NCBI RefSeq assembly: GCF_000612545.2
Contig: NZ_CP097800.1
Coordinates: 6,688,001 to 6,752,000 of the forward strand
DNA: 64,000 bases
Direction of reading: 5' to 3'
Source of the DNA: Streptomyces sp. PCS3-D2
GTDB lineage: Bacteria > Actinomycetota > Actinomycetes > Streptomycetales > Streptomycetaceae
Part shown: positions 3,156 through 59,926 of the stretch, in pieces
Layout of the letters: each line of letters begins with the position of its first letter
Numbering within the stretch: position 1 is the first letter of the stretch
Made by a program: the position numbers and the translations under genes
Notes under the pieces: generated by a model
Database searches by the model: none
What the model saw: the letters and a program-made list of their open reading frames with translations, nothing else
What the model was told of the DNA's origin: nothing

Positions 3156-4412
3156 TCAGCCGCCGGCCGGGACGGTCTTGAACTCGACGGGACCGGTGCC
3201 CATGCGGAACTTGCCGTTGGAGTACAGCGTCGGGCGCGCCTCGACGTTGCGTCCGCTGTACTGCTCCACGTGCCCGATCCGGACGCCCTCCTCGGCCGTG
3301 AAGTCGACCATGGCGATGGCCACCCAGTAGGCCTGGGCCCGGGTGCTGAACAGGGGCACGGTCACGGTGGAGCCGCAGTTGTCGGTGACGACCACCCGTG
3401 CTCCGTAGGACCGGAACGATCCGACACCGTTCTCGACCGCGCTGTAGGCGCACAGCAGGACGTAGCCCTGGAGGTCGGGGCGGGCGATCGAGACGGTCTC
3501 GCGTCCGGGCTCCCGGGCGTCGCCGTCCAGGGCGATGAAGGGCGGGCCGGTGAGCGAGCCGAGGCGCCGGTAGTAGATGGTCAGATCGGTGGCCTTCGGC
3601 CGCTGCCCCCGTACGGTCACCAGGTGCCTCGGGACGGACAGCGCGTACAGGTCGAGGTCCGCGCCGGCCTGGCGTCGCCGCGCGCTCCCGCCGTCCCATT
3701 CGAGCGTCGCGGTCACCACGACCCGGGGGTCGTCCTTGCGCAGCGAGAGCACGTCCGTACCGGACTTGGTGAGGACAATGCGCCGCGCGGCGGGGGCCGG
3801 CGGTGCCGACGGCCGGGCCGGGACGGGGACCTGAACGGGGGCCTGAACGGGGACCTGGACGGGTCCCTGAACGGGGGCCTGGACGGGGGTGGGCGTGACG
3901 GTCGGGGTCGGGCCGGGGTCGTCCACGACCACGCCGAAGTCCGTCGCGAGTCCGGCGAGGCCGGTGGCCCAGCCCTGTCCCACGGCCCGCACCTTCCACG
4001 CACCCGCCCGCCGATACAGCTCGACCACCAGGGCCGCCGTCTCCCCGCCCACCAGCGGCGGCGGTTCGAAGACGATCCGCGTCCCACCGCACTCGACCGC
4101 GGCCCGCGGGGTGCTTCCGGCGTCGAAGGAGACGGGGCCGCTCGCGCCGGTGTCGAGCGCGGCGACGATCGCGACGCACTCGACCGACGCGGGGACCGCG
4201 GCCAGGTTCACCGTGATCGTCGCGTCCGTCAGCTCCACCCCGCTCTCCACCGGATGGTTGAAGAAGACCAGATCGTGATCCCCGCGGACCCTGCCGTCGG
4301 CTCCGAGCAGCACGGCGCACACATCGATCTCCGCGCCGGGCGACACGAGCTGCACCCGGCACGAGGGTGCCGGCAGCGGGGCGTTGGCGCCCTTGGCGAG
4401 TCTGATGTCCAT
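3156..4412 (-). CDS. TerD-family protein with two TerD domains
   Basis: A 418-residue protein. Residues 1 to about 165 form a TerD domain (starting MDIRLAKGANAPL, with FDAGSTPRA and ELYRRAGAWKVRAVGQGW late in the domain). A linker of alternating Pro-Val-Gln units (about 172-200) leads to a second, diverged TerD-like half ending with YSNGKFRMG. TerD domains bind calcium and appear in tellurite-resistance and phage-defence gene sets, often next to CHAT or caspase proteases. It starts at ATG 4412 after GAGAGG. It lies 64 bases downstream of the CHAT gene on the same strand and is probably co-transcribed. The linker DNA is a degenerate tandem repeat at about 3825-3895. Confidence 0.85.
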   Translation of the reverse strand: MDIRLAKGANAPLPAPSCRVQLVSPGAEIDVCAVLLGADGRVRGDHDLVFFNHPVESGVELTDATITVNLAAVPASVECVAIVAALDTGASGPVSFDAGSTPRAAVECGGTRIVFEPPPLVGGETAALVVELYRRAGAWKVRAVGQGWATGLAGLATDFGVVVDDPGPTPTVTPTPVQAPVQGPVQVPVQAPVQVPVPARPSAPPAPAARRIVLTKSGTDVLSLRKDDPRVVVTATLEWDGGSARRRQAGADLDLYALSVPRHLVTVRGQRPKATDLTIYYRRLGSLTGPPFIALDGDAREPGRETVSIARPDLQGYVLLCAYSAVENGVGSFRSYGARVVVTDNCGSTVTVPLFSTRAQAYWVAIAMVDFTAEEGVRIGHVEQYSGRNVEARPTLYSNGKFRMGTGPVEFKTVPAGG

Positions 4413-4476
4413 CGGTGGCCTCTCGTCGTGTTCCTGTGGGGCGGTCCCGGCTCCGGGTCCCGCCCCGTGCGTTCGG

Positions 4477-7400
4477 TCAGCGCCCCGTGGCGATGAAGCC
4501 CGCCCAGGCGCTCAGGTCGTCGGGCACGATGCGCGGCAGCAGGCGCGCCAGCCCGTCGGGAGCGTGTGGCGGCAGCGACCGGCCCGGGTCCGCCATCCAC
4601 CGCTGCGCCAGCCGCAGCGCCTCGGCCGGCCCACGGCCCTCGGCCCGCAGGTAGTGGTGGGTCATGAACATCAGCAGCGACGTGGCCTCGTCGGGCACCG
4701 GCCACAGCGAGCCGACCACCGACCGCGCTCCGGCCGTGAGGAAGGCCGTGGCGAGGGTGTAGGCCTCGTTGGTCCCGCGCCCGGAGACGTGGCTGCGGCA
4801 GGCCGCCAGCACCACCAGGTCCGGGTGCCCGCCGTCCGCGTCGCCGTCGATGGTCTCCGTCAGCTCCTCCGCCGCCAGGTTTCCTCCGTGCAGCAGCAGT
4901 GCCGCGCTGTGCCGCACGTTCTCCACCACCGTGGCGTGGCAGGCCAGGTGGAGCGTGCCGCCCCGGCCGGCGCCGGACCGCAGCCACGCGAGCACCTCCT
5001 GCGGACGGCCCGTCCCGCCGGGTGTGGTGAGGCCGCCGGCCCCGGCGCGCCCGAGGTAGACGGCCTGCGGGTAGTAGGCCTCGCGCACGGCCGCCGCCTC
5101 CCGACCGGCGAAGGGCAGGTCTCCGGTCGGATCGCCGACGATGAGGGCCGCGTCGGTGCGGGGCCGTGCCGGGCGCTCGGCCACCTCGCACAGCAGTCGG
5201 GCGGAGGCGGTGTAGGTGAACTCCGCCGTGTCCACCGCGTACCGGCGCCCTCCGCCGGACCGGGTGCTCCAGGCGGCGTGCCACGGCACGGCCGACAGCT
5301 CCCCCATGGGGACGAGGACCAGCCGGGGCGCCCGGCCGGCCGGTGCGACCGGTACGTCCCGACCCAATCCGCACGCCAAGGGCTCCGCCACCGCCTGCCA
5401 GGCCCAGGCGCACAGCCGGTCGAGCCGCTGGGACAGCGACCTCGCACGGGGCGGGACATGGGTGCCGGGCCCGCTGCCCATGTCCCGCCGCGCGGGCCGG
5501 CCGCCCCGCTCCGTGGTGGTGACGGTGGTGAGGGCGTCGAATGCGGCGACCGGATCGAATCCGGCGGCCGGATCGAACCCGTCGGCCGGGGCGACACCGG
5601 CGTCCCTCCGCGGTCCGTCCCGTTCCGGCGGGGTGGCCGTCATCCGGGCCTGCCGGACCGGCCCGCCCTCCGGCCGGACGAGGTACTGGCGTATCGGCTC
5701 GGCGTCCTCACGCAGCAGCGGCAGTGGTACGACGCCGGTCCGTCCGTCGGCCGCCACCACGAGCGCGGCGCCGGCGCCCTCACCGACAGAGCCTGGCGGG
5801 CCGGCGGGGAGCAGGTAGACCAGGGCGTCGCGCCCGAGCGTCCGCAAAGCGGCGGCGATCCGCGGGACGCCCGGTGGGGAGAGCAGGCGGGCGGCAGCAT
5901 CGCCGTCCAAGGCCAGCAGCACATCCAGGACCTCGCGGCGCAGGGCGCTCGCCGGAGCGGCACCGGAAGCGAGCACCCTTGCCCATCGGTCGGCCAGTGC
6001 GCCGTGCCCGGCGTCGCTCAGGCGTCGTTCGACGGTCCGGGCCGTCGTCGCCGCGTGCAGGACGAGGCCGCGGCAGGCGTCGAGCGTCCAGGCGGCCTCG
6101 GCCGGTTCACCGTCCGCCAGGCACCAGTGGGCCACGCTCAGCGCGGTGGCGCTCGCCCCGGCGGCGGCCGTCGCGGCGTCGGCCGTACCGGCCTGGAGGA
6201 GCACGCCGTACGCGGTGGCCCGCAGCGCGTCCGCGGCGATGCGCCGGGACCTCTGCCGGTCGCCCGCGGCCCCGTCGTCCCGCAGGCGCAGGGACTTGGC
6301 GAACAGGAATCCGCTGTGGGCCCGGAAGGGGTGCTCGGGGCCCCCGGTCTCCCGGTACGTCTGGTCCAGGACCCCGATGGCTTCGTCGAGCCGCCGGCGC
6401 CGCGACCAGGGGCGGCCCAGGACCGCTTCACCGCAGCTCAGGAGGCCGATGAGCATGCCGGATCCGAGCCACACGTCGTCACCGCGTACGGCTGCGTCCC
6501 GGGCCGCCCTCAGCACGGCGGCGGCGTCCCGCAGGGCGGAGCGGTCCCTGCTGCCGTAGGCGCGCGCCGCGCGCGCAGTGCCGATCGCGGCCAGCATCCC
6601 GGCGCGTTGTGTCGACGGCATGCCCGCCGTGGAACGGACGAGGTCGAGCGCGGCGATGTCGCCGCTCGCCGGTGGGGTGGCGGTCCGGGCCAGCTCGGTC
6701 CGCAGGGCCTCCCACGCCGGATGGCCGGGGTCCATGCCGAGGACCTCGGGGCTCAGGGCGGCGAGGGCCTGGTCCCGTGGGCCGGCGGGTCCCGGTTCCA
6801 GGAGCGTTGAGAGGACGGGGAAGACGGCCTGGAGGCCGGCGAGGTCCGGCAGGCCCGCGCGCTCGGCCTCGGTCATCCCCTCCATGCGCCGGATGAGGTC
6901 CCGCATGGCCCGCACGCCCGCGGTGACGTCGTCGTGGCCGCCGTTCACCACGCCGTTGAGGATTCTGAGGACGGACTCCATGCCGACCATCACGTCCGGG
7001 TGCCCGGTGGCCGGGCCGTGCTCGCCCGGGGCGCCGGTCGCGGTCGCCGCCACCCCGGCGGCCTCGACCGCGCGGCCCAGCAGCGGGCCGGCGCGCAGCG
7101 CCCCGTAGTGGCCCTGCGCCACGCTGACGGCCATGCTCGCGTTCCGGCCGAGCGCCCCTTCCGCGGGCGCGACCGTCTCCAGCAGGGCCTGGAGACGGTC
7201 GGGGGTGAGCCGCGTCCGGTCGGGGTCGAGCAGGGGGGGTGTGCCGCAGCAGGACCATGGCGTGGGCGACGTGGTCCGTGTCGCGGTCGGTCCCCTGCTG
7301 CCAGCGCCGCAGCAGTTCCTCGACGTCTTCGGTGGGCCCGACGAGTTGGTCGACGGTTCGGGTCCAGTGCTCGGCATCCGTCGGCGTACCGGCGCCGGCC

Positions 7401-8830
7401 GCCGCGGCCGTCTCGGCGCGGTAGCGGGCCGCGTCGGGGTCGGCGGTGTTCCCCCCGCCGGCGAGCAACTGGGCGCGGACGACGGCTCGTATCAGGAGCG
7501 CCGACAGGAGGGGATTCGGCTCCGCCGTCCGGTCGAGGACGGCTGCGGCGGCCCGGGCGGAGGCCAGCAGCTCCGCCGGCCGGTCACTGGACAGGTCCAG
7601 GCGGTAGGCCGCCAGCTTCAGGTACGGGGCGTGCGGGGGGCCGTGTTCCGGCAGCCACCGGGCGGCGGCCTCCTCCAGCAGCTCCAGGGCGTGTGCCTGC
7701 TCCGTCGGGTCGGTGTCGGCCGCGGGGAGGTCGACGAGGAAGCAGGCCAGCGCAACGAGCACGTTCGGGACGGCCGCGCCGGTGTGCGCGGCGGAACCGG
7801 TGACGCTGCGGACACGGTCGACCAGTGCGCCCGGTGCGGCGGCGGCTCCGTCCACCTGCCAGGCCTGTACCGCTGCGCAGACGGCCAGCGTCTCGGCCCG
7901 CTGCGCGCGGTCGGCCCAGAAGGCCTCTCCCTCCGACGCGGACTGCGCCGCGGAGGCGGCCTGCCGGGCCCTCGCCTCCTCGCCCGACGCGGTGAAGGCG
8001 GCGTCCGCCTCCCGGAACAGCCCGGCGTCCGAGGCCAGTACCCCCTGGTTGAAGAGGGCGACACCCCGGCCGTCCCCGATGGGCGACACGTCGTCGGCGT
8101 CGGCCTGCGCGCCCCGGACCCTCGCTGCCCGGGCTTCGGCGAAGTGGCGGGCCCCCTCGGCGAGGCCGGGCGCGTCACCGAGGTGCGCCGCCCGTTCGGA
8201 CAGCAGCCGGGCCAGGGCTTCCTGCAGCGCCGCGCGGTCCGCCGGCGCCAGGGCGGGTTCGCGGCCTTCGCCGGCCTCGGGGCCTTTGCCGTCGAGGAGC
8301 GCCGTGTAGCCCGCCACGGCCCGCGCGTGGTCGGACGGCGCGCCGGTGAGCGACCAGCGCAGGGCGGCGATCTCGGGCAGGTGCAGGCGTGCCCACCGGG
8401 CCGCGTCGGCGTCGACGGTGTCCCGTGGGAGGTTCACGACGGCGGCGACCAGCGTCTCGGCGCGGTCCACCGTGGCCGGCGTCGGGTGCCCGTCGTCCTC
8501 CGTGAGGAGCAACTGGGCCAGGTGCAGGTACCCGTGGGCGCGCAGTTCAACGGGCCCGCCGTCCGCCGCCAGGCCCCGCTCCAGTGCGGCCCGAGCCAGT
8601 GCACGGTCGTACGGGCCCTGTTCGGGGTCGCCGCCGTCCGCCACCCGCTCGGCACAGAGCAGGCCGAGCCGCAGCCAGGTACCGGCAGCCTCCGGGGACC
8701 CGGGAGCCGCCTCCTGCGCCTCGCCCAGCAGCAGGTCGCGGTCCCAGCGGGAGGCGTCGAACCACTGGCTTTCCCACGGGGGCGGCAGCGGGTGGGCGGG
8801 ATCGAAGCAGGGGTGGCGGGAGCCGGTCAT
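4477..8830 (-). CDS. CHAT-domain protease with long helical N-terminus (frameshift in this sequence)
   Basis: Two overlapping frames form one protein of about 1450 residues. The N-terminal 530 residues run from ATG 8830 (after GAGGGAAA) to the end of VAHAMVLLRHTPP. The rest continues in the next frame at LLDPDRTRLTPDRL. The switch falls on a seven-G run (7233-7239, C in the coding strand); removing one base restores the frame. Residues 1-1000 are Ala/Leu-rich helical-repeat sequence. The C-terminal 350 are a CHAT (caspase-HetF-associated) peptidase with the LHLACHA histidine (about 1298) and LAACRS cysteine (about 1344) both present. Intact catalytic residues after the shift suggest a sequencing error or recent mutation. 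It lies between the membrane protein and TerD genes. Confidence 0.82.
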
Positions 8831-8919
8831 CGTGGATTTCCCTCGGGTGCTTCGTCCTGGTGCGGATGGCGGGCGGATGGCGGCGGCGGGTGGGCGGCTG
8901 CCGCTGTCGGGTGCCCCGT

Positions 8920-9990
8920 TCAGGGCCGCAGTACCACGCCGAACCGGGTCGTCAGCCGGTGGACCTCCCACCACGTCACGGCGGTGACCGTGATCGGGCC
9001 GCCGAGCACGAACAGCAGCGCGAGGGGTACGGGCCCGGGCGGGAGGCCCGACGTCAGGAGGCCGACGGGCACGAACTCCCACACGAGGAGGGCGGTCAGC
9101 AGGCCGGGCAGCGCCTTGTGGATCTGGCCGGTCCCGAACCCGGCGCGCACCACGAGGCTGGACGAGAACAAGGTGAACGCCGCAGCCCACACCAGCAGGG
9201 CCACGATCACGATGGCGACCGCGAAAGCGATGTACGGGTGATCCTCCAGGGAGCCCAGTACTCCGATGGTCGCCAGCAGCAGCAACGGCACGGACGACAG
9301 CGCGCCCACGTACTTGGCCACGGTGATGAGCGGGACGCGCAGCGTGCCCCTCATCCGGGCGTGCTCGCTCACGGAGGCCCATCTCATGAGCAGGTAGACG
9401 AGCAGTGGGGCGGTCAGCACCAGCAGCCATGGCGCGACCATCATGCGTACGGCGCCGTCCGTCAGGGCGTTCTCGATGTCGTTCTGCGCCCCGTAGGCGA
9501 TGAGGAAGACGGACGACGCCAGCACGGCGAGCACCGCGCGGACCTTTTTCATCCGCGACAGGGGAGGGTCGAGGATCGGATCGTGTTCCAGGCGGAAGAC
9601 GCGATGCGCGCGATTGCGTGCCGATCGGACCAGCGAGTACATGATGAGGAGCGGGATCGTTCCCGGCACCAGCAGGACGGCGGCGTTGAGGCAGCCGGGT
9701 ACGGACTGCGCGATTTCTCCCACCGACCGCCACTCGCGGAAGCCCTGGGGCGTCTCCTGCGGGGCGGCGGCCCCCCAGCCCTCGGGGGTCTGCTGCCCGT
9801 GTCCCCAGCCCTGCCCGGGTTGAGGGGTCGGGTAACCCCACCCTTGGACGGGGTGCGGGGCCGGTTGTCCCCAGCCGGGGGCGGGCGGTTGCCCGGCGCC
9901 CCAGGGCTGCGGCTGTCCCGGTATGGAACCGTGCCCGTACGGACCGCCGGGGTTGCCCGGCGGCGTCGCGTTCGGAGTGGTGTCGGTCAT
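8920..9990 (-). CDS. Polytopic membrane protein with Pro/Gly/Trp-rich cytoplasmic tail
   Basis: A 356-residue protein starting at ATG 9990 after AAGGGGG. The first 85 residues are low-complexity Pro/Gly/Gln with repeated GWG and PQPGQGW units. Several hydrophobic helices follow (near AAVLLVPGTIPLLIMYSLV, VLAVLASSVFLIAY, LLVLTAPLLVYLL, VPLLLLATIGVL, IAFAVAIVIVALLVWAAAF and a last pair near the C-terminus). I do not recognise a transport or enzymatic family. It is the first gene of the minus-strand set membrane protein-CHAT-TerD, 89 bases before the CHAT start, and faces the caspase gene. A role as the membrane target or anchor of the CHAT/caspase system is inference from position only. Confidence 0.75.
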   Translation of the reverse strand: MTDTTPNATPPGNPGGPYGHGSIPGQPQPWGAGQPPAPGWGQPAPHPVQGWGYPTPQPGQGWGHGQQTPEGWGAAAPQETPQGFREWRSVGEIAQSVPGCLNAAVLLVPGTIPLLIMYSLVRSARNRAHRVFRLEHDPILDPPLSRMKKVRAVLAVLASSVFLIAYGAQNDIENALTDGAVRMMVAPWLLVLTAPLLVYLLMRWASVSEHARMRGTLRVPLITVAKYVGALSSVPLLLLATIGVLGSLEDHPYIAFAVAIVIVALLVWAAAFTLFSSSLVVRAGFGTGQIHKALPGLLTALLVWEFVPVGLLTSGLPPGPVPLALLFVLGGPITVTAVTWWEVHRLTTRFGVVLRP

Positions 9991-10370
9991 GCTGTCCCCC
10001 TTGCGCCGGAGACCCCCGAGAGGGCGGCGCGGTGCTACGGAACGGATCAGGCGGAGGCACCCGGGCGGTGGCGCGGGTGGTACGGGCCGTACGAGCGGCG
10101 CGGATGCGGATGCGGGTACGAGAAGGAACGGAGCATGCGGATTCAGTGCGCCGCGGACGGGCGCGAAGGCGCGTGCAGGCAGGCCGGGTTGACGGTGATG
10201 TGCCCGTCCGAACGCTGTTACGGCCCGGCCCCGAGCCCGCGCGCCGGGCGGGTGCCGACCTCAAGTGAACCCCAACCCGAGCCTTTTGGAGGCCTGTTTC
10301 ACCGTCTGCGCCCCGAAGACAACCCGGATTCGCCCTACGGGCGACCCACCCCCTCTGCCAGGCTTTCCGC
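9991..10370. other. Divergent promoter region between membrane protein and caspase genes
   Basis: A 380-base interval without a supported gene. Promoters for the minus-strand membrane-CHAT-TerD set and the plus-strand caspase gene must lie here. I could not pick out convincing -10/-35 pairs. The CTTTTGGAGG sequence near 10282 looks like a ribosome site but no good coding frame follows it. Confidence 0.4.
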
Positions 10371-12248
10371 ATGCCAACGGTCAACTGCCTCCTCGTGGGC
10401 ATCGACGCCTACCCCACCCACCCCTTGACGGGCTGCCGCAACGACGTCGCGTCCGCCGAGCGATGGCTCCGCTCGCTGGCGGACCCCCTGGTGAACATCC
10501 GCGTGCTCACCGACGCCGGGGCCCAGCGGTCGGCCGTCGTCAAGGAGATCAAAACGCACCTCGGCGCGGTCGGCCCCGGGGACACGGCCCTGCTCTGGTT
10601 CAGCGGGCACGGCTCCGACCGTGCGACCGAGGATCCGCGCGAGGCCACCGGCCGGGCGCAGGCGCTGGTGTGCCACGACAGCCTGGACGAAGGCGGCCTG
10701 CCCCTGGCCGACGACGAACTGGGCGCGCTGCTGGACGGGATCGCGGCGACCGGCGCGCACGTCGTGGCCGTCCTCGACTGCTGCTACTCGGGCGGGGCGA
10801 CCCGTGAGGACCGTAGGGCCCGCAGCCTGCCCTGGCAGCCGTCGTGGGACCGGCTCACGCGGCGCGGCGCTGGGAGATCGCTCTCGGGACCGGCCGCCGG
10901 CGCACCCCGGCACGTCCTGCTGGCGGCGAGCCGTCTCGACGAACTCGCCTACGAGACCCGTGTCCCGGACGCCGACCCGCATCCGGCGACGGAGGTCTCG
11001 CCCTCACCCGTCGATCCGGGGAGCAGCCACGGGGTGTTCAGCGCAGCGTTGTTGGAGGTCCTCGCCGACCTGGGCCCCGACGCATCGTGCCGCGAGATCC
11101 TCGACGTGGCCACGGCGCGGATGCACGGCAGGCCCGGACGGCAGCACCCCACCCTCCACGGCCGGGGGGACCTCGGGTTCCTGCACGGCGGGCGGGTGCC
11201 CGCGTCCCGTTTTCGGCTCGGCTTCGCGCACGGGTCCTGGTCGGTCAACTGCGGTTCCGTGCACGGACTGGACGCGGTGGGGGGCGAGTTCACCGTACGG
11301 ACTCCGTCGGGCGGAACCGGGACCGTGGCGGTGCGCGAGGTGTTCCCCGAACGGTCCCGGGTGGAACCGCTGGACGGTCTTGCCGGGGCGCTGGACCGTA
11401 CCCGCCTCACCCCCGCGGTACCGTCCGCCATGGCCTTCCGGCCCGCGGCCGTCACGGTGACCGGTGGCGGTGCGTGGACGGGTCCGCTCAGGTCCGCGAT
11501 CGATGACCACCCCCTGCTGGCGACCGGCGGCGCCGGGACGCCGCTGACCGTCGCCGTCACGGACGGGGTCGCGCGCGTCACCGGCGGCAGCCGCCCCCTG
11601 CCGTCGCTGCCGCTGCGCGACGACGGCGACGTGGCGGGCGTCGTCAATGCCCTGTCGCACCTGGCGCACTGGCACCGGGTACGCGCCCTCGCGAACCCCG
11701 ATCCGACGCTGTCCGAGCTTGTCCGGGTCCGCGTGGAGCCGATCCTCGGTGCCCAGCGCCTCTCGGCCACGGGCGAGCTGGTGCACGAGTACACCCCCGA
11801 CGGGCAGCCGCCGCAGGCCCGCATCACGATCCACAACACTGCGGACCGCAGGCTCTGGTGCACCCTGCTGGACCTGACGGACAGCCACGGCATCTCACAC
11901 GGGCTCTACGAAGGCGACTTCGTGGCGCCCGGCCACACGGCGTACGCCCTCAGGGGCGCCCCCGTCCTGCTCTACCTGCCCGAGGGCCGCTTGGTGCAGC
12001 CCGGCGCGTACGTCCAGGACTGGCTGAAGGTCATCGTTTCCGAGAACGAGTTCGACCTCGAACCCCTCCTGCTCCCGGCCTGGTCCACCGAGAACGCGGG
12101 GCGCTCGACACGCGGGGCGTCCGCACCGCTCCTGCGCGTCGGGGGATCCGCCGCCGACCGTGACCTGGGCGGGTCCTCCGCGGCCGGCCGGTGGGGAACG
12201 TCCACGTTGGCCCTGCGCACCGAGGTACCGGGCCCGGCCCGTTGGTGA
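10371..12248 (+). CDS. Caspase-family (peptidase C14) protein
   Basis: A 625-residue protein with an N-terminal caspase/metacaspase domain (1 to about 255). It begins with NCLLVGIDAY and carries the catalytic His80 in LWFSGHGS and Cys138 in VLDCCYSGG. The SSHGVFSAALLEVL helix is typical of bacterial caspase-like proteases. The remaining 370 residues form a beta-rich region with PQARITIHNTADRRLWCTLL and ALRGAPVLLYLPEG. This looks like the uncharacterised C-terminal region of actinobacterial caspase proteins and may be a sensor or partner-binding part. The ATG at 10371 has only a weak ribosome site. It is transcribed away from the membrane-CHAT-TerD set and convergent with the RES operon. Confidence 0.88.
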   Translation: MPTVNCLLVGIDAYPTHPLTGCRNDVASAERWLRSLADPLVNIRVLTDAGAQRSAVVKEIKTHLGAVGPGDTALLWFSGHGSDRATEDPREATGRAQALVCHDSLDEGGLPLADDELGALLDGIAATGAHVVAVLDCCYSGGATREDRRARSLPWQPSWDRLTRRGAGRSLSGPAAGAPRHVLLAASRLDELAYETRVPDADPHPATEVSPSPVDPGSSHGVFSAALLEVLADLGPDASCREILDVATARMHGRPGRQHPTLHGRGDLGFLHGGRVPASRFRLGFAHGSWSVNCGSVHGLDAVGGEFTVRTPSGGTGTVAVREVFPERSRVEPLDGLAGALDRTRLTPAVPSAMAFRPAAVTVTGGGAWTGPLRSAIDDHPLLATGGAGTPLTVAVTDGVARVTGGSRPLPSLPLRDDGDVAGVVNALSHLAHWHRVRALANPDPTLSELVRVRVEPILGAQRLSATGELVHEYTPDGQPPQARITIHNTADRRLWCTLLDLTDSHGISHGLYEGDFVAPGHTAYALRGAPVLLYLPEGRLVQPGAYVQDWLKVIVSENEFDLEPLLLPAWSTENAGRSTRGASAPLLRVGGSAADRDLGGSSAAGRWGTSTLALRTEVPGPARW

Positions 12249-12263
12249 GGACGCCTGGGAAGG

Positions 12264-12300
12264 CCCGCGTGTGGACCCGGAACAGGTAGGCCCACGCGGG
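12264..12300. terminator. Hairpin between convergent caspase and RES genes
   Basis: CCCGCGTG at 12264 pairs with CACGCGGG at 12293, with two further GG/CC pairs after a one-base bulge. No U-tract follows, which is common in actinobacteria. Its position between converging stop codons supports a bidirectional terminator. Confidence 0.55.
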
Positions 12301-12324
12301 TCGGTGCGGGGACGCCCAGGCAGG

Positions 12325-13005
12325 TCACCATGCCAACTGCGACACGGACACGGCGGGAGCGACCCTGGCTCCGTAGCCGGAGAGGACCTGGTTCAGCCAG
12401 TGCTCACCCTCCGGTGTCCCGAAGTCGATGCGCGGGGCCGTGTCCGCCTCCAGCAGCTCCGCTGGGCAGCGGTCCTCGAACAGGACGGTCGCCCGGTCGG
12501 CCGGTTCCCGCTTCGACGGCCACACAAAGCCCGCCGCCCAGGGCTCCGTGTGCTCCCTGATCCACCGCGCCCAGTCGCGGGTCTGCGGGTACTCGGGGGG
12601 CTCGGCGTGAATGAGCCAGGAGTCCTGGCCGACGGCGGCGAGGTCGGCGCCCGACATGAGCGACAGCACGTCGATGTCCTCGGACAGCTGCAGAAAGGAC
12701 AGGCTCCGCCGGGCCACTGCGGCCCGCGGGAGGAGGCGGAGCCCGCCGTCGGGGCGGAAGGGCACCGACCGCAGCAGCACTTCGCTCACCGCGGCGCCCA
12801 CGCCGAAGCCCGCGTAGAGGAATCCGAAGGGGGCGCGGGCGGTGCCGTCGAACCGGCCGCCGCCGTAGAGTTCGTCTGCCGGTACGGGGTTGAAGGCCGT
12901 ACCGGGACGGCGTGAGGAGTGCACCCGGTACAGCGGGGTCCCGGCCGGGAGGACCACCGGTCGCGGAACGCCGGGCAGGGCCGCGGGCGGCGGCTGGTTC
13001 GGCAC
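12325..13005 (-). CDS. RES-domain toxin, likely NAD+ phosphorylase/NADase
   Basis: A 226-residue RES-domain protein. The family signature is LYRVHS with Arg27, then FLYAGFGVGAAVSEVLL with Tyr64 and Glu75. Known RES toxins (for example mycobacterial MbcT) degrade NAD+ and are held by an Xre/MbcA-type antitoxin. The start is GTG 13005, one base after the stop of the antitoxin-like gene (TGA-C-GTG), so the two are translationally coupled. The longer open frame upstream is antisense-type sequence. The order antitoxin then toxin matches the known family. It is the last gene of the macro-antitoxin-RES operon. Confidence 0.82.
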   Translation of the reverse strand: MPNQPPPAALPGVPRPVVLPAGTPLYRVHSSRRPGTAFNPVPADELYGGGRFDGTARAPFGFLYAGFGVGAAVSEVLLRSVPFRPDGGLRLLPRAAVARRSLSFLQLSEDIDVLSLMSGADLAAVGQDSWLIHAEPPEYPQTRDWARWIREHTEPWAAGFVWPSKREPADRATVLFEDRCPAELLEADTAPRIDFGTPEGEHWLNQVLSGYGARVAPAVSVSQLAW

Positions 13006-13006
13006 G

Positions 13007-13684
13007 TCAGTCCCCCTCGCCCGCGTCGGCCGCCTCGCGGCCGGCCGCCCACAGTGCGACGTCGCGGCCGGTTCCGAGCAGTGCCGATGGGGGCTCTCCC
13101 CACCAGGTGTGCTCCGAGGCCCACCAGTCGGCCGTGCCCCACGGGTCCTCGGCCGCCCCCAGCAGGGCATTGATCCGGGCGACGATGTCCCAGGGGGCGG
13201 CGCCGGACTCGAACTGGAACGCTGGGTAGCGGCGCCGGCCCCGTGCGTCGGACAGGGCGATCAGGTCCCGGTGGGTCGGATCGCCGCCCGCCCGCACGAG
13301 CTCCGTCTCCGACAGCGCCGGCATGTCCAGCAGCCGTTCGCGGACCGGTCGGAGCCGGGGTCCCACCATGGGATTGCCGTCGATGACGAGCATGCACAGG
13401 TCGGCGGCGTCGAATCCGGCCGCGGCCTGGGCCTGCGCTCCGGCATACCGGGCCGCGTCGGTGTCGCGGCGCAGTTGGTCCACCTCGTCCTCGGGCAGGG
13501 CGTCCAGCACCGCCCGTACGACGTGCGCGACGATCTCCGCGCGCTCCGTTGCCCCGGCGTCCTCCTCGCCGCGCAGCCTGCCGAGCAGCGCCGTGAGTTC
13601 GTGCCGCACGGGCCGGGGGAGCCGCGGTGCCAGTCGGTCCCACCGTGCGGCGAACACGCCGAGCATGTCGGGGGAACTCACCAT
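13007..13684 (-). CDS. MbcA/ParS/Xre-type antitoxin-like protein
   Basis: A 225-residue protein. The C-terminal 70 residues (RYPAFQFESG, then IVARINALLG, DPWGTADWWASEHTWW and a small GTGRDVALWAAG helix) match the toxin-binding fold shared by MbcA, ParS and Xre antitoxins that pair with RES toxins. The N-terminal 130 residues are helical and longer than in minimal antitoxins. They lack an obvious helix-turn-helix, so self-repression of transcription is uncertain. It starts at ATG 13684 and overlaps the end of the macro-domain gene. Its stop is one base from the RES start. Confidence 0.75.
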   Translation of the reverse strand: MVSSPDMLGVFAARWDRLAPRLPRPVRHELTALLGRLRGEEDAGATERAEIVAHVVRAVLDALPEDEVDQLRRDTDAARYAGAQAQAAAGFDAADLCMLVIDGNPMVGPRLRPVRERLLDMPALSETELVRAGGDPTHRDLIALSDARGRRRYPAFQFESGAAPWDIVARINALLGAAEDPWGTADWWASEHTWWGEPPSALLGTGRDVALWAAGREAADAGEGD

Positions 13685-14847
13685 GTCCCCTCCACCACCT
13701 CGTCGCACCGGTACGCGGCCGGCTCGCCGGCCCCCTCCACCCTGCGACCGTCCAGCACCCGCAGCAGTGTTCCGGCGGAGGCCGGACGCCGCATGACCAG
13801 GTGCACCTCGCGCCCGGCGGCGACGGCTGCGGCGAGCGTCGGCCACAGGGCGCTCACGCTCTCCTGGACGGGCAGCCCCCCGCGCCCGGCGCCCAGCAGG
13901 GCGAAGCAGATCGAGCGCAGCGGAGGATCGAAGAGCGGCGCTTCCCGCGCCATCAGGGACAGCGCCCCGGAGGCGGCGGCCGCGACGTCCCGGGGCAGGA
14001 CGTCGTAGTCGTTCGAGCCGGTGCGCGGAATGGCCACCGCGGCGTGGTAGACACGGCGTACGCCCTGTCCGGCCAGGGCTCCGGAGGGGGTCGACACGAC
14101 GGTACCCGGAGCCACCGCTCCGTGCGCCAGGCGGTGCTCCCGGCGCCAGGCGGTCAGCCCTTCCTGGAGCGGATCCTCCACGACGGTCCCCGAGGCGTCC
14201 CGGACCGCCGCGGCCCGGCGCAGGGCGGCTCCCACCGAGGCCTTGTACGGGCCCGGGAGGCTCAGGTGGGTATTGGTCGGCGCCACCACCACGTCCACGC
14301 CGCGCAACAGCTCCACGGGGTGGATGTGCAGGACCACCCGCGCGTGGCGCCCGGCACCCCGCAGCTCGGCCCGTTGGTGTTGGAGGTCCGGGGCGGGCAG
14401 CGGTGCGGCCCGCTCGGCGAGCGTGCGGGGGCGTGCGGCGGCACCGTTCGCGGCGACCCAGCACACCTGCTCGGCCACCTGGTTCAGGACCATCCCCTCC
14501 TGGAACTTGCGGAACCGCTCGGTGCTCACCCCGTAGACTTCGGCCGCGAGCCGGCGGCGGTCTGCGGCAGCCCGGCTCCGCAGTGCCGGCGCGAGGCCGA
14601 GCGAGAACTCGGCGGCCTGTCGTAGGTCGCCCTCTCCTAGCAGTTCGACGGCCGTCCGCAGCGTCCGCTCCACGGCCATCGGCCAGGAGGCGGGGGGCGG
14701 ATCCGCCACACAGGCCGCGGCCCGGCGCAGCAGCGGGACGTCGAGGTGGCGCAGCCGCGTCACGCCCTCGCGGCGGACGACCTTGATCTCGGCCAGCATC
14801 GACGCGGGGTCGAGGGGCTCCTCGGTCGGCCATGGCATGCTGCCCAT
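13678..14847 (-). CDS. Helical domain plus macro (ADP-ribose-binding-like) domain protein
   Basis: About 389 residues. The N-terminal 150 are helical, with FRKFQEGMVLNQVAEQV, and resemble adaptor domains found in actinobacterial conflict proteins. Residues 190-350 follow macro-domain order: VDVVVAPTNTHLSLPG as the VNAAN-like strand, GTVVSTPSGAL as the G-x-A-x-x-T strand, RVYHAAVAIP as the H-x-V-x-P strand, and a FALLGAGRGGLP loop. Macro domains bind or remove ADP-ribose. Several ligand positions are non-canonical, so it may only bind. The start could be ATG 14847 or 14838. It is the first gene of the operon, and its last bases overlap the antitoxin start. Confidence 0.66.
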   Translation of the reverse strand: MGSMPWPTEEPLDPASMLAEIKVVRREGVTRLRHLDVPLLRRAAACVADPPPASWPMAVERTLRTAVELLGEGDLRQAAEFSLGLAPALRSRAAADRRRLAAEVYGVSTERFRKFQEGMVLNQVAEQVCWVAANGAAARPRTLAERAAPLPAPDLQHQRAELRGAGRHARVVLHIHPVELLRGVDVVVAPTNTHLSLPGPYKASVGAALRRAAAVRDASGTVVEDPLQEGLTAWRREHRLAHGAVAPGTVVSTPSGALAGQGVRRVYHAAVAIPRTGSNDYDVLPRDVAAAASGALSLMAREAPLFDPPLRSICFALLGAGRGGLPVQESVSALWPTLAAAVAAGREVHLVMRRPASAGTLLRVLDGRRVEGAGEPAAYRCDEVVEGTW

Positions 14848-15089
14848 CGTGGCACAGCCACGCCTCCGACATGTCGCACTTCCCCGTTCTCGCTCCACCG
14901 CCCGCCCCTCTCCCACATGCCCCACAGTGCAGGCTGGTTACGCACACGCGGGGCGGGTAGGGCGAGGCTTGCTCGCCGACCGACGAGTTCCGACGGCTCC
15001 CCGCGGACCGCTTCGGCGGATCCGTTCGGCGTGAGCGGGGGCTCGCTGGTGGACGCCGTCCCGGCATCCGACGGTTCGATCCCTGCACT

Positions 15090-15831
15090 GTTCGCCGCCG
15101 CCGCCGACCCGCACCCCGCCTCACATGCGGCCACGACGATCTGGCTGAGGGCGGCGGGGTCGGGTGCGTCGGCGGGGAAGAGGATTTCGGTGCGGCGGCT
15201 GATTTCGAAGCGGCTGTTTCCGTCGCCCTGACGGACGTAGAGCTTGCCGTCGGGTATGCGGGCGATGAGGTCTGCGATGCCGTCGCCGGGGTACCAGTCG
15301 CCGGAGTGCGCGATCAGCGCGTCCTTGAAGTGGCCGGAGGGTGCGGGCTTGCCGTCATCGGTGGCGGCGGGCATCCAGGCGTCCACGTCACCAGTGGCAT
15401 CTGCCGGATAGACACGCAGGTCCCCCGTGCCGTCGACGGCCAGGACATCGGCTGACCGTCGCCGGGGCCGTCGAGGCTGGGGCGGGGGTGGGGACGGCCT
15501 TCCTGTCGTAGATCGGGTGGTTGAGGGACCGCTGGGACTCGGTCATGTCCGTGGGGGTGGTTCCGCCCGCGATGACGGTGATCTTGCCCGGGCCCAGGGT
15601 GTTCTCGGCCTCGCCGTTCCAGGGGCCGCTGCCGGACCACTGCTCTGCCCAGTCGATGGTCTGGGCGAGCCAGTAGTGCGTCTTGCCAGGCGTGAACTTC
15701 TTCCAGCCGATGAGGTGCTGCCGGAAGGCCGAAGCGCGCGTCCCCCGGTGGCGGATGCGGGCTTCGGTGGTGCGGGTCCACAGCACCCGGAAATCTTCCA
15801 CGGAGTCATGTCCCCGACGGTGGTCGATCAC
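15090..15831 (-). pseudogene. Fragment of an FG-GAP/VCBS-repeat secreted protein
   Basis: Three frames together give a plausible protein piece. They read EDFRVLWTRTTEARIRHRG to LNHPIYDRK, then LDGPGDGQP in a second frame, then DVLAVDGTGDLRVYPA and GDGIADLIARIPDGKLYVRQ in a third. The latter parts resemble FG-GAP-type propeller repeats common in Streptomyces secreted proteins. At least two frame changes occur between about 15430 and 15510. There is no signal peptide and the right end is lost, so this is a decayed internal fragment. The host gene family is unclear. Confidence 0.6.
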
Positions 15832-15884
15832 GTAAAGTAATTTCCTGTTCGCTGAGCGTACGTACGGGGCAAGGGGGCGGCCGG

Positions 15885-18800
15885 GTGCTGGAGTTGCAGC
15901 TCCGCGTGGAGGACTTCGATGGGCCGAGGTCCTGGAGGTGGGTGCTCAGCCGGGAAGGCGAGTTCCTGGCCGACCACCAGGTGGTCATACCCGAACCCTG
16001 CTGGGAGTTCGCTGCTCTGCAGGACCTGCACGGCCATGTGCAGTGGGCAGGTGTGACTGACATCTCTGCCGACAGCGAGAGCGAGATCCTGACCCAGATC
16101 GGGCATTGGGCGTACACGTACGGTTTGGGGGCGGTGGGGCAGGCGCTCGTCGCCCAGTCGGTCCCGGTCACCGTACGGCTCGTCACCTCGGCGCAGACGC
16201 GTCACCTTGCCATCTGGCCATGGGAGTTGGCCATCGCGGACAGCCGCACGCTCGCCTCGCGAGACATTCGCTTCGTCGTCGATCTCGACCTCCAGACACC
16301 GGTGCGGCCGCGGGTGGAAGCCGGACAGGCACTGCGGGTGCTCGGCCTGTTCAGCCTTCCTGACGACGCGAGCCCGCTGAACCTCCGCCGGGAGAGGGTC
16401 GCGCTGATGAACCTCTTCCAGGAGGTGAGTGCCGTACACAGGAAGGCGATCGACCTGCGGATCCTTCAGTACGGCGTGACGCGGAAGCGATTGCGGGACG
16501 TCGTCAACGACGGACAGGGGTGGGACATCCTCCATGTATCCGCCCATGGATCGACGACCGGCCTCCTGCTGGAACGGGAGGACGGTTCACCGGACCTGGT
16601 CACCAGCGAGGACCTGCGGATTCTCCTCGGCCCCCTGGCCGCGCGGGTCAAGTTCGCCATGGTCTCCTCGTGCTCATCGGGCGCCTCGGAATCCGACGCT
16701 TTCGCCGCACGTGTGGACGAACTCCGACCGGTCCACAGGGACAACGTGTCCCGGTCGGATCGGATATCACCGTCGCCCTCACTGGCGGCGGCCCTGGCCG
16801 CACAACTGGGCTGCTGGGTGCTCGGCATGCGCTACCCGGTCGACGACCGGTTCGCGATCGAACTGTCCCACCGCGTCTACAACCGCCTGATCGGCGATGC
16901 CGCTCAATCCCCGCCCCAGGCACTTGCCTTCGCCCTGTCGGAATGGCAAGAGGAGTCCGGAAGGCCGACACTCGCTGAGATGACGCCGATCCTCTTCGGG
17001 TGTCAAGGCGCGGAGGTGAGGCTGACTGCCCCCGCCCTCACCGGTCCGCCGCTCGGCGCGACCCACTCCAGACAGCAGGCCTTCCTGCCCTCCCCGCCGG
17101 CGGAATTCGTGGGCCGCGCCGGACTGCTGACCGCTGCGAGCAAGGCACTCGCGCCCCGCAGCGGTGCGTCAGGAGTCGTGCTGCACGGCATGCCGAGGGT
17201 GGGCAAGAGGGCTTGCGCCCTCGAACTCGCGCACACCCACGCCGACAGGTTCGCGGCGGTCGTATGGCACGAGGTGCGTGACGACGAGCACGTGGGCACG
17301 GCCCTGCAACGCTTCGCGCGCGAGTTCCGGAAGCAGCTCGAGGATGCCGGCCTCACACCGATCGCCCACTTCGACGACCTGCGCACCCTGGACGATCCGG
17401 ACCTGCTCGCCAGGTCCCTGCGCCTGCTGTCGATCTTCCTCACCAACAACCGCGTCCTCGTCGTACTGGACCATGCGACTCCTCTGCTCACCGAACAGGG
17501 GCGGTGGCGGGACCACCGATGGGGCAGGTTCGTCGACGCGGTGACCGGCCACTCCGGTCTGTCCAGGCTGGTCATGACGACGTCGAGTGCCGTCCCAGAC
17601 CTGGACGACCGGGTGACGCGTCTGCCTGTCGTGCCGCTGTCGACCCGCGAGGCCGCGCTCCTGGCCAGGTCCCTGCCGGACATGTCGGCGCTCTTCGGCG
17701 AGGGATCGAAGTCCCGAGAGACCATTCGCAGCCTCCTTCGAGCGTGTGGGGGCCACCCAGGACTGCTGATGGACGCTTCGCGCGACGTCCTCCTCGACGC
17801 AGGGCCGCCCGACGGCTTCCGTCACGCCGAACTGAATGACGACCACCTCGCCATCACCCGGTGGACCTGCACGGTGACCGGTCAACTGCCGTACCCCGAG
17901 CAGCTACTGGCGGCTCTGCTGTGCGACCTGGAGGAGAACGACCGCATCCCTTGGGTTCTCCGTGATGCCTGGCCGAAGCTGTGGCAACACCTCGACCGGC
18001 CGGGCACCGCACCACCCTGGCAAACCCTGCTGCGCAGTCTCGAGGCACGAGCGCTGCTGACCGTCGAACGTGCGACGGAACAGAACACTTTCGAGGTCGA
18101 GGTTCCGCCCGTCCAGGGCTCCGCCGACAGCCCCGGAACCGCCTTCACGATGACGGGTCAGGCCGCGGTGGAGATCTACCCCGGCCTCGTCGTCGGTGTC
18201 CACGACGATGACGAGGGCGTTCTCTGCATCCGCGTCCATCCCACGGTGGCGGAAGCCGTGCGCGCCATGGCCGAACCGGAGTTCCCGCAGACCATCTCCG
18301 GATGTCTCGCCGAACTGTGGATGCGCCTGATGAGCGCGGAAGCCCTGAACTACCCGGATCGCGAACTGACGATCATGGAGGCCGCGGCTGCTCGCCACGC
18401 CATCCCGTACGCAGCGCGACAAGGCGCCTGGAGTGAGGTCCACCAGCTCTTCGAAGTGCTCTTCTCCCGGGACGCGTCGCCGGAGACGGTACGCGGCGTG
18501 CTGCCTTGGCTGCGCCAGGCGGCCGCGGAAGCGGACGCCGCTCCTGTGCGTTCCTTCTGCATGCGGTGGATCGCCCAGGCGTCGGGGGCCTCGTCCGCCC
18601 CAGCAGACGACGACCACATCCCGTCCGGCTTCCCGGGGGAGCCGGGCCTCAGTGCTCCTCAGCCGCGGATGGAGTCCGAGACCTGGCTGGACGACCTGCA
18701 GGAAGCCTACGAGCAGGGCGACTTCCACCGAGTGCTGGGCCATCTGACGAGGCTGCGCGACCAGTCGGTCCTGACGCCCCCGGCCGACAGCTCCCTCCGC

Positions 18801-20066
18801 GGGCGGGAGATGCGACGATTGATCGAGTCCGCCTTCGAGATGGGCTTCCGTGCCGCGGTGGGCCTGCGTGAATGGCAGCGGGCGCTCGACCTCAACAACG
18901 ACCTCCTCGACCTGATGCGCCAGAGGATGGCGGTCAGAGCCGCATCCGTCCGCGTCGAATTCCACAATCACGCCCCACTGATGGCGCTGGGCCGCTTCGA
19001 CGACGCCCGAGAGCTGCTGTTGCGGGTACGCCGGACAGCCGAACAAGAGGAGGATTCGAAGCTGCTGGGGATGGTCATGGGCTCGCAGGCTGGTCTTGAG
19101 TACCTGCAGGGCCACGTCGAGGTGGCCGTCCGCCTGCAGCGCGAAGCCCTCCGCCACTCTACCGAGGCCGGTGATCTCCATGATCTCAGCATCGGTCATC
19201 TCAACCTGGGCAACATGCACGTCGCCGCCGATGAGCCCTTGCAGGCATTGTGCAATCACCTCATCGGAGCCGTCATCGAGTGCGTGCGTGGCGGTGTCAC
19301 CACCTCCGATTCCGTGGCGGACCAGCTGGCCGAGAATCTGGACAAAGGGCGCGTCATGGCCTGCCCCCTCGACTGGCCGGACGTGCACCGGGCCGCTTAC
19401 GAGCACATCGGCATCCCCCTCGAACAGAGCCTCCCCGGCCTCTTTACCGCCGAGGACCCCCTCTCGCCGCAGCGAACGCTGGACGACCTTCTGCGGCGTG
19501 CCTGGCACCGGCTCAACCTCCGCTTCGCCCCTCATCTCGCAGCCTGGGACCCAGTGCTGTCAGCGATCGATGCCGCGTTGGCCGGCGACGACACCGCCCG
19601 TCGGGAGGCCCACCTCGCGCTGGACGACCTCTTGGAATCTCCGGAGTGGAGCCCGCTGGTCCGCATCCTGCGTGGCGTGCTCGAGAACAGGGCTGACGTG
19701 CCCGACGACAACCTCCAGCTCCTCCACCATGTGATCGTCTACCGGTTGCTGCACATGCCGACGACCGACGTCGGCATCCCGCCCGGGTTGTGGGTTCTCC
19801 AGTCCATGCGGCACCTCCTGTCTAGGGTGGTGGCCGCCGCGAACGGCGACGCGGGGGCGGCGGCCGAGCTTCAGCAGGCCTTGGACGAGCTGCCGGCCGG
19901 CGGCGGTGAGCAAGACCCACTTGCCGGGTTCCTGCGCCGACTCGCCTGCGGAGATACGACCGCGCAGGTGATGCCCCGGCTCGACTCCTTCATGGAGAGC
20001 GTCGTCCACTGGCTTGACACCCACATCGACCCGGCGGGCCCCCTTCCCGCCACACCTCCGAGCTGA
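15885..20066 (+). CDS. CHAT protease-NTPase-helical repeat conflict protein
   Basis: A 1393-residue protein. Residues about 140-380 are a CHAT domain with His221 (HVSAHGST) and Cys263 (VSSCSSG). EFVGRAGLL (about 407) opens a STAND-like NTPase with a P-loop GMPRVGKRA (435-443), where Arg replaces the usual Ser/Thr, and a Walker B-like strand VLVVLDHA lacking the second acid. ATP use may therefore be impaired. The C-terminal 650 residues are helical TPR-like repeats (for example AVRLQREALRHSTEAGDLHD). In known CHAT-STAND proteins the repeats sense a trigger and release the protease. It starts at GTG 15885 after a purine-rich AAGGGGG. No partner gene overlaps it. Confidence 0.83.
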   Translation: MLELQLRVEDFDGPRSWRWVLSREGEFLADHQVVIPEPCWEFAALQDLHGHVQWAGVTDISADSESEILTQIGHWAYTYGLGAVGQALVAQSVPVTVRLVTSAQTRHLAIWPWELAIADSRTLASRDIRFVVDLDLQTPVRPRVEAGQALRVLGLFSLPDDASPLNLRRERVALMNLFQEVSAVHRKAIDLRILQYGVTRKRLRDVVNDGQGWDILHVSAHGSTTGLLLEREDGSPDLVTSEDLRILLGPLAARVKFAMVSSCSSGASESDAFAARVDELRPVHRDNVSRSDRISPSPSLAAALAAQLGCWVLGMRYPVDDRFAIELSHRVYNRLIGDAAQSPPQALAFALSEWQEESGRPTLAEMTPILFGCQGAEVRLTAPALTGPPLGATHSRQQAFLPSPPAEFVGRAGLLTAASKALAPRSGASGVVLHGMPRVGKRACALELAHTHADRFAAVVWHEVRDDEHVGTALQRFAREFRKQLEDAGLTPIAHFDDLRTLDDPDLLARSLRLLSIFLTNNRVLVVLDHATPLLTEQGRWRDHRWGRFVDAVTGHSGLSRLVMTTSSAVPDLDDRVTRLPVVPLSTREAALLARSLPDMSALFGEGSKSRETIRSLLRACGGHPGLLMDASRDVLLDAGPPDGFRHAELNDDHLAITRWTCTVTGQLPYPEQLLAALLCDLEENDRIPWVLRDAWPKLWQHLDRPGTAPPWQTLLRSLEARALLTVERATEQNTFEVEVPPVQGSADSPGTAFTMTGQAAVEIYPGLVVGVHDDDEGVLCIRVHPTVAEAVRAMAEPEFPQTISGCLAELWMRLMSAEALNYPDRELTIMEAAAARHAIPYAARQGAWSEVHQLFEVLFSRDASPETVRGVLPWLRQAAAEADAAPVRSFCMRWIAQASGASSAPADDDHIPSGFPGEPGLSAPQPRMESETWLDDLQEAYEQGDFHRVLGHLTRLRDQSVLTPPADSSLRGREMRRLIESAFEMGFRAAVGLREWQRALDLNNDLLDLMRQRMAVRAASVRVEFHNHAPLMALGRFDDARELLLRVRRTAEQEEDSKLLGMVMGSQAGLEYLQGHVEVAVRLQREALRHSTEAGDLHDLSIGHLNLGNMHVAADEPLQALCNHLIGAVIECVRGGVTTSDSVADQLAENLDKGRVMACPLDWPDVHRAAYEHIGIPLEQSLPGLFTAEDPLSPQRTLDDLLRRAWHRLNLRFAPHLAAWDPVLSAIDAALAGDDTARREAHLALDDLLESPEWSPLVRILRGVLENRADVPDDNLQLLHHVIVYRLLHMPTTDVGIPPGLWVLQSMRHLLSRVVAAANGDAGAAAELQQALDELPAGGGEQDPLAGFLRRLACGDTTAQVMPRLDSFMESVVHWLDTHIDPAGPLPATPPS

Positions 20067-59707: not shown

Positions 59708-59926
59708 GCCACAGCTATCTGTCCTGGTCAGCCCGGTTTCGCGGCGGGGACGTTCCCTCAATGAGTGGTTTGAAAGCTGATGAGGCTTGCGCCCCGAATC
59801 GTTCAGGATCCCCTTGGGCATGTCCGTGCCGGGTTGAGGGTCCTGACCGTCGTGGAGTCGTCACCGTCCCTCGACCGAAGGCCGAGAGGTCGGCGGACAT
59901 TCCGGATGGCAAGGAGAACGTTCAAG

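What the first reader, a model, noticed from the sequence alone, without database searches (positions are those of the whole stretch)
3156..20066. TerD-CHAT-membrane-caspase-RES-macro island with two protease classes and NAD chemistry
One 17-kb stretch encodes two CHAT proteases, a caspase with both catalytic residues, a two-domain TerD protein, a membrane protein, and a macro-antitoxin-RES operon. The membrane-CHAT-TerD set faces the caspase, and the RES operon converges on it. TerD, CHAT and caspase-type proteins are known to co-occur in actinobacterial conflict systems, but linking them to a RES NAD-degrading toxin and a macro protein suggests a combined proteolytic and NAD-depleting cell-death or phage-defence system. 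The union of all parts into one system is inference from adjacency.
Basis: partly seen in the sequence, partly recalled or inferred. Interest (0 to 1): 0.8.

Follow-up and report, generated by a model that had tools for sequence, protein, structure and literature searches.

The report
Protease-linked NAD-destroying toxin cassette
Some soil bacteria of the genus Streptomyces keep genes for a protein-cutting enzyme, a predicted NAD-destroying toxin, its likely antidote and an ADP-ribose-binding type of protein close together, here also with a caspase like those of animal cell death, which looks like a cell-suicide switch released by protein cutting.

Summary
A RES profile finds 69 places in 61 of 393 same-genus genomes. 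Of these 69 loci, 67 have the antitoxin-like gene within 1 kb; within 10 kb, 64 have CHAT, 59 macro and 24 the caspase. All 24 caspase loci also have CHAT, in five arrangements. Caspase-linked RES proteins form one clade (24 rows, SH-aLRT 98). So CHAT + antitoxin-like + RES + macro is a conserved cassette; the caspase is one partner, others being vWA/PP2C/kinase/ClpB/Hsp70 and GTPase-type genes. TerD belongs at most to one sub-lineage (1 of 80 relative loci), and the second CHAT protein to none (0 of 80). The window's CHAT gene is split by a frame change near 7233. Inferred mechanism: CHAT, helped by the caspase, cuts the antitoxin and frees RES to phosphorolyse NAD+; the macro protein handles the product, ADP-ribose-1''-phosphate. 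Cleavage, enzyme activity and phage defence are untested. Nine searches of the held papers found no description of this set.

The parts
13678..14847 (-). Macro-domain protein (389 aa): helical N-terminal part plus C-terminal macro fold; first gene of the operon
   Evidence: Pfam Macro 0.0035; profile matches PDB macro domains from 7.6e-5; AlphaFold pLDDT 86.6 and Foldseek to macroH2A, YmdB, AF1521 at E 1e-9 to 1e-7, TM by target 0.7-0.8; N192 in 85 of 85 rows
13007..13684 (-). Antitoxin-like protein (225 aa), partner of RES
12325..13005 (-). RES-domain protein (226 aa), predicted NAD+ phosphorylase toxin
   Evidence: PF08808 7.6e-17; R27 in 69, R51 in 68, E75 in 68 and S164 in 69 of 69 rows; homologue named 'RES family NAD+ phosphorylase' by PGAP
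10371..12248 (+). Caspase-family peptidase (625 aa), convergent with RES
   Evidence: PF00656 1.1e-14; H80 and C138 in 27 of 27 rows; near RES in 24 of 69 loci
8920..9990 (-). Membrane protein, 7 hydrophobic segments; optional partner (true start may lie further in)
   Evidence: Homologue near RES in 12 of 69 loci; hydrophobicity
4477..8830 (-). CHAT protease with a long N-terminal region, read in two frames that meet near 7233
   Evidence: PF12770 1.3e-52; the 1429-aa homologue in L109 matches in two frames; Cys in 73 and His in 71 of 74 rows; CHAT within 10 kb of RES in 64 of 69 loci
3156..4412 (-). TerD-domain protein; neighbour kept in one sub-lineage only, not a core part
   Evidence: PF02342 3.2e-23; also downstream of CHAT in L109/L230, 73% identical, but in 1 of 80 loci

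Best explanation
A protease-gated toxin-antitoxin cassette. Shown: CHAT protease, antitoxin-like protein, RES protein and macro protein are a conserved unit in Streptomyces, and in one clade they are joined to a caspase and often to a membrane protein. Inferred: at rest the antitoxin-like protein blocks the RES active site. A stress such as phage infection, sensed through the membrane protein, the long CHAT N-terminus or another partner module, switches on CHAT and the caspase as a protease relay. They cut the antitoxin; [quoted passage not shown] the cell stops growing or dies. The macro protein binds or clears that product, limiting damage or passing it on as a signal. The window's own CHAT gene is split, so this copy may be inactive, or the split is an assembly error.
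For: Linkage: 67, 64, 59 and 24 of 69 RES loci with antitoxin-like, CHAT, macro and caspase; RES and macro in the same 13 of 121 genomes; CHAT near 17 of 18 RES hits; the set is kept through five arrangements. Catalytic residues of CHAT, caspase and RES conserved. RES makes ADPR-1''P (PMC11535050, passages) and macro domains act on it (PMC9503650, passages). Antitoxin-like fold points to Rv2175c and weakly to NatRT. A caspase unmasks a killer enzyme in Canu phage defence (PMC12799240, abstract and section 8).
Against: No experiment. 5 of 69 RES loci lack CHAT and 10 lack macro within 10 kb (a few on short contigs). 2 of 7 caspase-CHAT pairs found elsewhere have no RES beside them. The antitoxin-like protein has no PF09722 match. 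No cleavage site was found or sought. The window's CHAT gene is split. PADLOC recognises the caspase and weakly a part of CHAT, not the set.
Confidence: 0.55

Rival explanations
1. RES with its antitoxin-like partner is an ordinary toxin-antitoxin pair (stress or addiction) riding with proteases whose substrates are other proteins, as Csx29 cuts Csx30.
For: RES pairs occur alone elsewhere in bacteria; 5 of 69 RES loci here lack CHAT within 10 kb; 2 of 7 caspase-CHAT pairs elsewhere lack RES.
Against: CHAT is near 64 of 69 RES genes and across most of the RES tree whatever the other partner; RES, antitoxin-like and CHAT genes often abut or overlap.
Confidence: 0.2
2. Reverse order: RES is the signal maker. 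A trigger frees RES, its ADP-ribose-1''-phosphate is bound by the macro protein, and that switches on CHAT and/or the caspase, which kill by proteolysis.
For: Fixed RES-macro pairing; macro fold with conserved N192; the sequence seems to lack the GGG loop of hydrolases (by eye, motif recalled), which suits a reader domain; macro domains read TIR products in Thoeris (PMC11204291, listing and start of abstract).
Against: 10 of 69 loci have no macro within 10 kb, 2 of the 24 caspase loci among them; ligand binding untested.
Confidence: 0.12
3. The same switch serves development (programmed death of mycelium) or protein-stress responses rather than phage defence.
For: Found in filamentous actinobacteria; partner modules include Hsp70 and ClpB-like chaperones.
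Against: Patchy presence, 61 of 393 genomes, unlike a core developmental gene.
Confidence: 0.12
4. Chance neighbours.
For: Fits the second CHAT protein and, outside one sub-lineage, TerD.
Against: 17 of 18 RES hits near CHAT against about 0.0067 each; 64 of 69.
Confidence: 0.01

Closest known systems
RES toxin-antitoxin pairs (NatRT, MbcTA, ParST, Xre-RES)
   Same: RES domain with conserved R, R, E, S, directly beside an antitoxin-like gene
   Different: No PF09722 match in the partner; two extra constant genes (CHAT, macro) and exchangeable sensing modules
Canu caspase-nuclease system (PMC12799240: abstract and section 8 read)
   Same: Caspase thought to unmask a killer enzyme; killer cassette shared by different systems
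   Different: Killer is a RES protein, not a metallo-beta-lactamase nuclease; CHAT and macro added
Craspase (type III-E CRISPR, Csx29 CHAT protease; PMC10028731 passages)
   Same: CHAT protease as the proposed switch
   Different: No match to the Csx29 model above cut-off (17.4 against 300 bits); no Cas protein among the ten island proteins
SAVED-CHAT to prokaryotic caspase relay of a type III CRISPR system (recalled, not read)
   Same: CHAT and caspase in one relay
   Different: No SAVED domain or CRISPR gene among the ten island proteins
EACC1-caspase and GAP1-N2 GTPase systems (Kaur 2020, PMC7159879: passages, sections 29 and 33)
   Same: Multicellular actinobacteria, caspase peptidase, kinase/PP2C/vWA/Hsp70 neighbours in other cassette loci
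   Different: The text has no 'RES domain' and no 'CHAT' (CHAT could be counted there as caspase superfamily); our caspase is under the EACC1-type cut-off
Macro-type Thoeris (PMC11204291: listing and start of abstract)
   Same: Macro domain beside a NAD-consuming enzyme
   Different: No TIR match among the ten island proteins; RES would make a different product; proteases present

Membership tests
RES domain family (PF08808) | Profile match above cut-off | tested here: met
   62.2 bits against 23.2
RES domain family (PF08808) | Conserved R, R, E, S (PMC3482391, passage) | tested here: met
   R27 69, R51 68, E75 68, S164 69 of 69 rows; assignment to the published residues is by motif, not by superposition
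RES domain family (PF08808) | NAD+ phosphorylase activity | not testable with these tools
   needs enzyme assay
RES-Xre/MbcA/ParS toxin-antitoxin pair | Adjacent partner gene | tested here: met
   67 of 69 loci within 1 kb
RES-Xre/MbcA/ParS toxin-antitoxin pair | Partner carries PF09722 (Xre_MbcA_ParS_C) | tested here: not met
   No match at the antitoxin-like gene and none over cut-off in 13 genomes
RES-Xre/MbcA/ParS toxin-antitoxin pair | Partner has the antitoxin fold | tested here: inconclusive
Macro domain | Macro fold | tested here: met
   Pfam itself below cut-off
Macro domain | Binds or cleaves ADP-ribose derivatives | not testable with these tools
   needs binding assay
EACC1-caspase system | Caspase of the EACC1-associated type | tested here: not met
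   43.6 bits against a cut-off of 140
EACC1-caspase system | Small partner with one membrane helix (PMC7159879 section 33) | tested here: not met
   the membrane protein has 7 hydrophobic segments
Craspase (type III-E) | CHAT protein over the Csx29 cut-off | tested here: not met
   17.4 against 300 bits
Canu caspase-nuclease | Metallo-beta-lactamase nuclease beside the caspase | tested here: not met
   no such Pfam match among the ten island proteins
Thoeris | TIR-domain gene | tested here: not met
   no TIR match among the ten island proteins

The most novel reading that the evidence does not exclude
RES does not merely starve the cell: its product ADP-ribose-1''-phosphate is an immune second messenger read by the macro protein, so a protease-released NAD+ phosphorylase feeds a signal back to CHAT and caspase. 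This would be a self-amplifying death circuit whose effector cassette has passed between caspase, kinase/chaperone and GTPase sensing systems.
Probability: 0.2. Interest if true: 0.92.

Novelty: new variant of a known kind. Interest (0 to 1): 0.72.

Why it matters
It ties a predicted NAD-destroying toxin to dedicated proteases in about one Streptomyces-genus genome in six of those sampled (61 of 393). It gives a tractable case for a question put in print: whether ADPR-1P made by RES enzymes has a role beyond NAD+ loss (PMC11535050, passage); the near-constant macro partner is a candidate receptor or processor. It would also be another example of one killer cassette shared by unrelated sensing systems, as in PMC12799240.

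Tried and rejected
TerD as core: 105 of 121 genomes have a homologue at E 1e-30. Seven regions around TerD homologues in other genomes (L086-L092) hold no other island gene at E 1e-4. Rejected except as a neighbour in the window and L109.

Second CHAT protein as core: no match in 80 loci. Programmed frameshift in CHAT: not favoured, since L109 lacks the run of C at that site; assembly error and real mutation were not told apart.

RES and antitoxin-like profiles against PDB sequences gave only antibody chains and one designed binder. Macro-only or incomplete loci exist: of the 80 macro loci 14 show macro alone and 2 no called family gene, some on short contigs. Phages: one weak match to the caspase domain (29%, 28% of the query). 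Plasmids: RES in 18 records, all Streptomyces; the 15 listed are S. clavuligerus.

Counting choices: L099 was mis-sliced (fused gene call); it stands apart in the RES tree and was dropped from the RES residue count. Seven loci fetched twice were dropped from the tree and residue counts, not from the 76. One of 23 caspase calls in the 80 loci (L121) is a partial 23-bit hit. Genomes of one genus are not independent, so the chance figures are rough.

Full report
What is there. The window (71% GC) lies in a 7.63-Mb genome. On the minus strand lie TerD (3156-4412), a CHAT protease (4477 to about 8830), a membrane protein (8920-9990), and a tight operon of macro, antitoxin-like and RES genes (14847 down to 12325), the first two overlapping by 7 bp and the last two one base apart with the starts chosen here. 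On the plus strand lie the caspase (10371-12248) and a second CHAT protein (15885-20066).

A correction. The 1429-aa homologue of Streptomyces sp. C10-9-1 (L109) matches the window with residues 1-522 in one frame and 525-1428 in another, the break lying at a run of C near 7233. The homologue has no such run there. Intact copies exist in relatives. Assembly error and broken gene were not told apart.

First sample. In 121 same-genus genomes the caspase is in 8, the window's own included. Of the 7 others, 5 have CHAT, antitoxin-like and RES beside it and 4 of these 5 also macro; 2 have CHAT beside the caspase but no RES. RES (E up to 1e-20) and macro (E up to 1e-15) occur in the same 13 of 121 genomes. 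17 of 18 RES hits have a CHAT domain within 8 kb, against about 0.0067 expected per gene from 48 CHAT domains in those 13 genomes. For the window the nearest CHAT in that count is the second, unrelated one; its own lies 6.8 kb from RES.

Second sample. Of 126 relatives of the macro protein the best 80 loci were returned. They hold RES in 60, antitoxin-like in 58, CHAT in 57, caspase in 23 (one partial) and membrane protein in 10; 14 show macro alone and 2 no called family gene. Record titles are mostly Streptomyces, with Actinomadura, Acrocarpospora, Herbidospora and Catenulispora.

Third sample, chosen by RES. 393 same-genus genomes gave 69 places in 61 genomes. All 69 regions were scanned: antitoxin-like within 1 kb in 67; CHAT, macro, caspase and membrane protein within 10 kb in 64, 59, 24 and 12; antitoxin-like + CHAT + macro in 58. 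Beyond the genus the profile is rare at E 1e-20: 4 of 396 phylum genomes, 3 of them this genus.

Gene order. Of the 24 caspase loci, 11 read macro-antitoxin-RES-CHAT with convergent caspase, 8 the same plus membrane protein, 2 this without macro, 1 has macro beyond the caspase, and 2 have CHAT beyond the membrane protein (window and L194). A set kept through rearrangement argues for a shared function. Caspase-linked RES proteins form one clade of 24 rows (SH-aLRT 98, quick tree; the 25th, L099, was mis-sliced). An independent annotation (PGAP) of a S. clavuligerus plasmid names, in order, two hypothetical proteins, RES family NAD+ phosphorylase, CHAT domain-containing protein and a convergent caspase family protein, then a hypothetical protein; the three hypotheticals match our macro, antitoxin-like and membrane proteins.

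Other partners. Among 76 RES-bearing loci, duplicates included, 26 are caspase type, 1 caspase plus AAA, 32 carry kinase/ClpB/PP2C/radical-SAM-type genes, 3 these plus GTPase-type genes, 2 GTPase type, 1 AAA and 11 none of those sought. Pfam names vWA, PP2C, protein kinase, 4Fe-4S/radical SAM, ClpB-like AAA and Hsp70 in L112, kinase, AAA and radical SAM in L163, and a sub-threshold DO-GTPase2 in L074. These recall the GAP1-N2 systems of Kaur 2020 (PMC7159879, section 29), whose text has no 'RES domain' and no 'CHAT'.

TerD and the second CHAT. A TerD homologue is in 105 of 121 genomes but in 1 of 80 cassette loci (L109; 73% identical when read in full in L230). It may belong to that sub-lineage. 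The second CHAT protein has no match in the 80 loci.

Mechanism. The best reading is a toxin held by its partner and released by dedicated proteases. CHAT is near-constant and so is the likely releasing enzyme; the caspase is an added layer in one clade and the membrane protein an optional input. Canu shows a caspase unmasking a killer enzyme in phage defence (PMC12799240, abstract and section 8), and Csx29 a CHAT protease switched by target binding (PMC10028731, passages). That CHAT or caspase cuts this antitoxin is inference.

Novelty. Each part is of a known family. The cassette and its sharing among sensing systems appear in none of nine searches of the held library, which lacks most subscription papers. 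PADLOC recognises the caspase (8.6e-24) and weakly part of CHAT. I rate it a new variant of protease-gated conflict systems.

Noticed in passing
window 7200-7260 (minus strand): Frame change at a run of C splits the CHAT gene; relatives L109 and L094 have it in one frame.
   Followed up: partly
window 15885-20066: CHAT-AAA-TPR protein with a sub-threshold FxSxx_TPR match (46.5 against 300 bits); no match in the 80 cassette loci.
   Followed up: partly
L021, L022, L025: Caspase-CHAT loci with an AAA ATPase (about 521 aa, PF00004) and a coiled-coil-looking gene of about 600 aa; L021 and L022 have no RES beside the caspase.
   Followed up: partly
L073-L076, L121 and others: In non-caspase cassette loci a small protein of about 180-190 aa with a hydrophobic N-terminus often precedes CHAT.
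   Followed up: no
L085:6447-8249: A 600-aa protein with a C-terminal part like our macro protein (39% over 236 aa) and no other cassette gene called on its 9.9-kb contig.
   Followed up: no
window 14760-15831: Two short ORFs with coding-like GC between macro and the second CHAT protein, one with a sub-threshold FG-GAP match; perhaps gene remnants.
   Followed up: no
window 21911-28189, 53757-54992, 59780-62301: A 2092-aa protein with an RHS repeat, an IS110-type transposase, and an IS21-like transposase/IstB pair.
   Followed up: no
window 1990-2940 and 34622-37078: A Beta-lactamase2-family protein and a penicillin-amidase-family protein.
   Followed up: no
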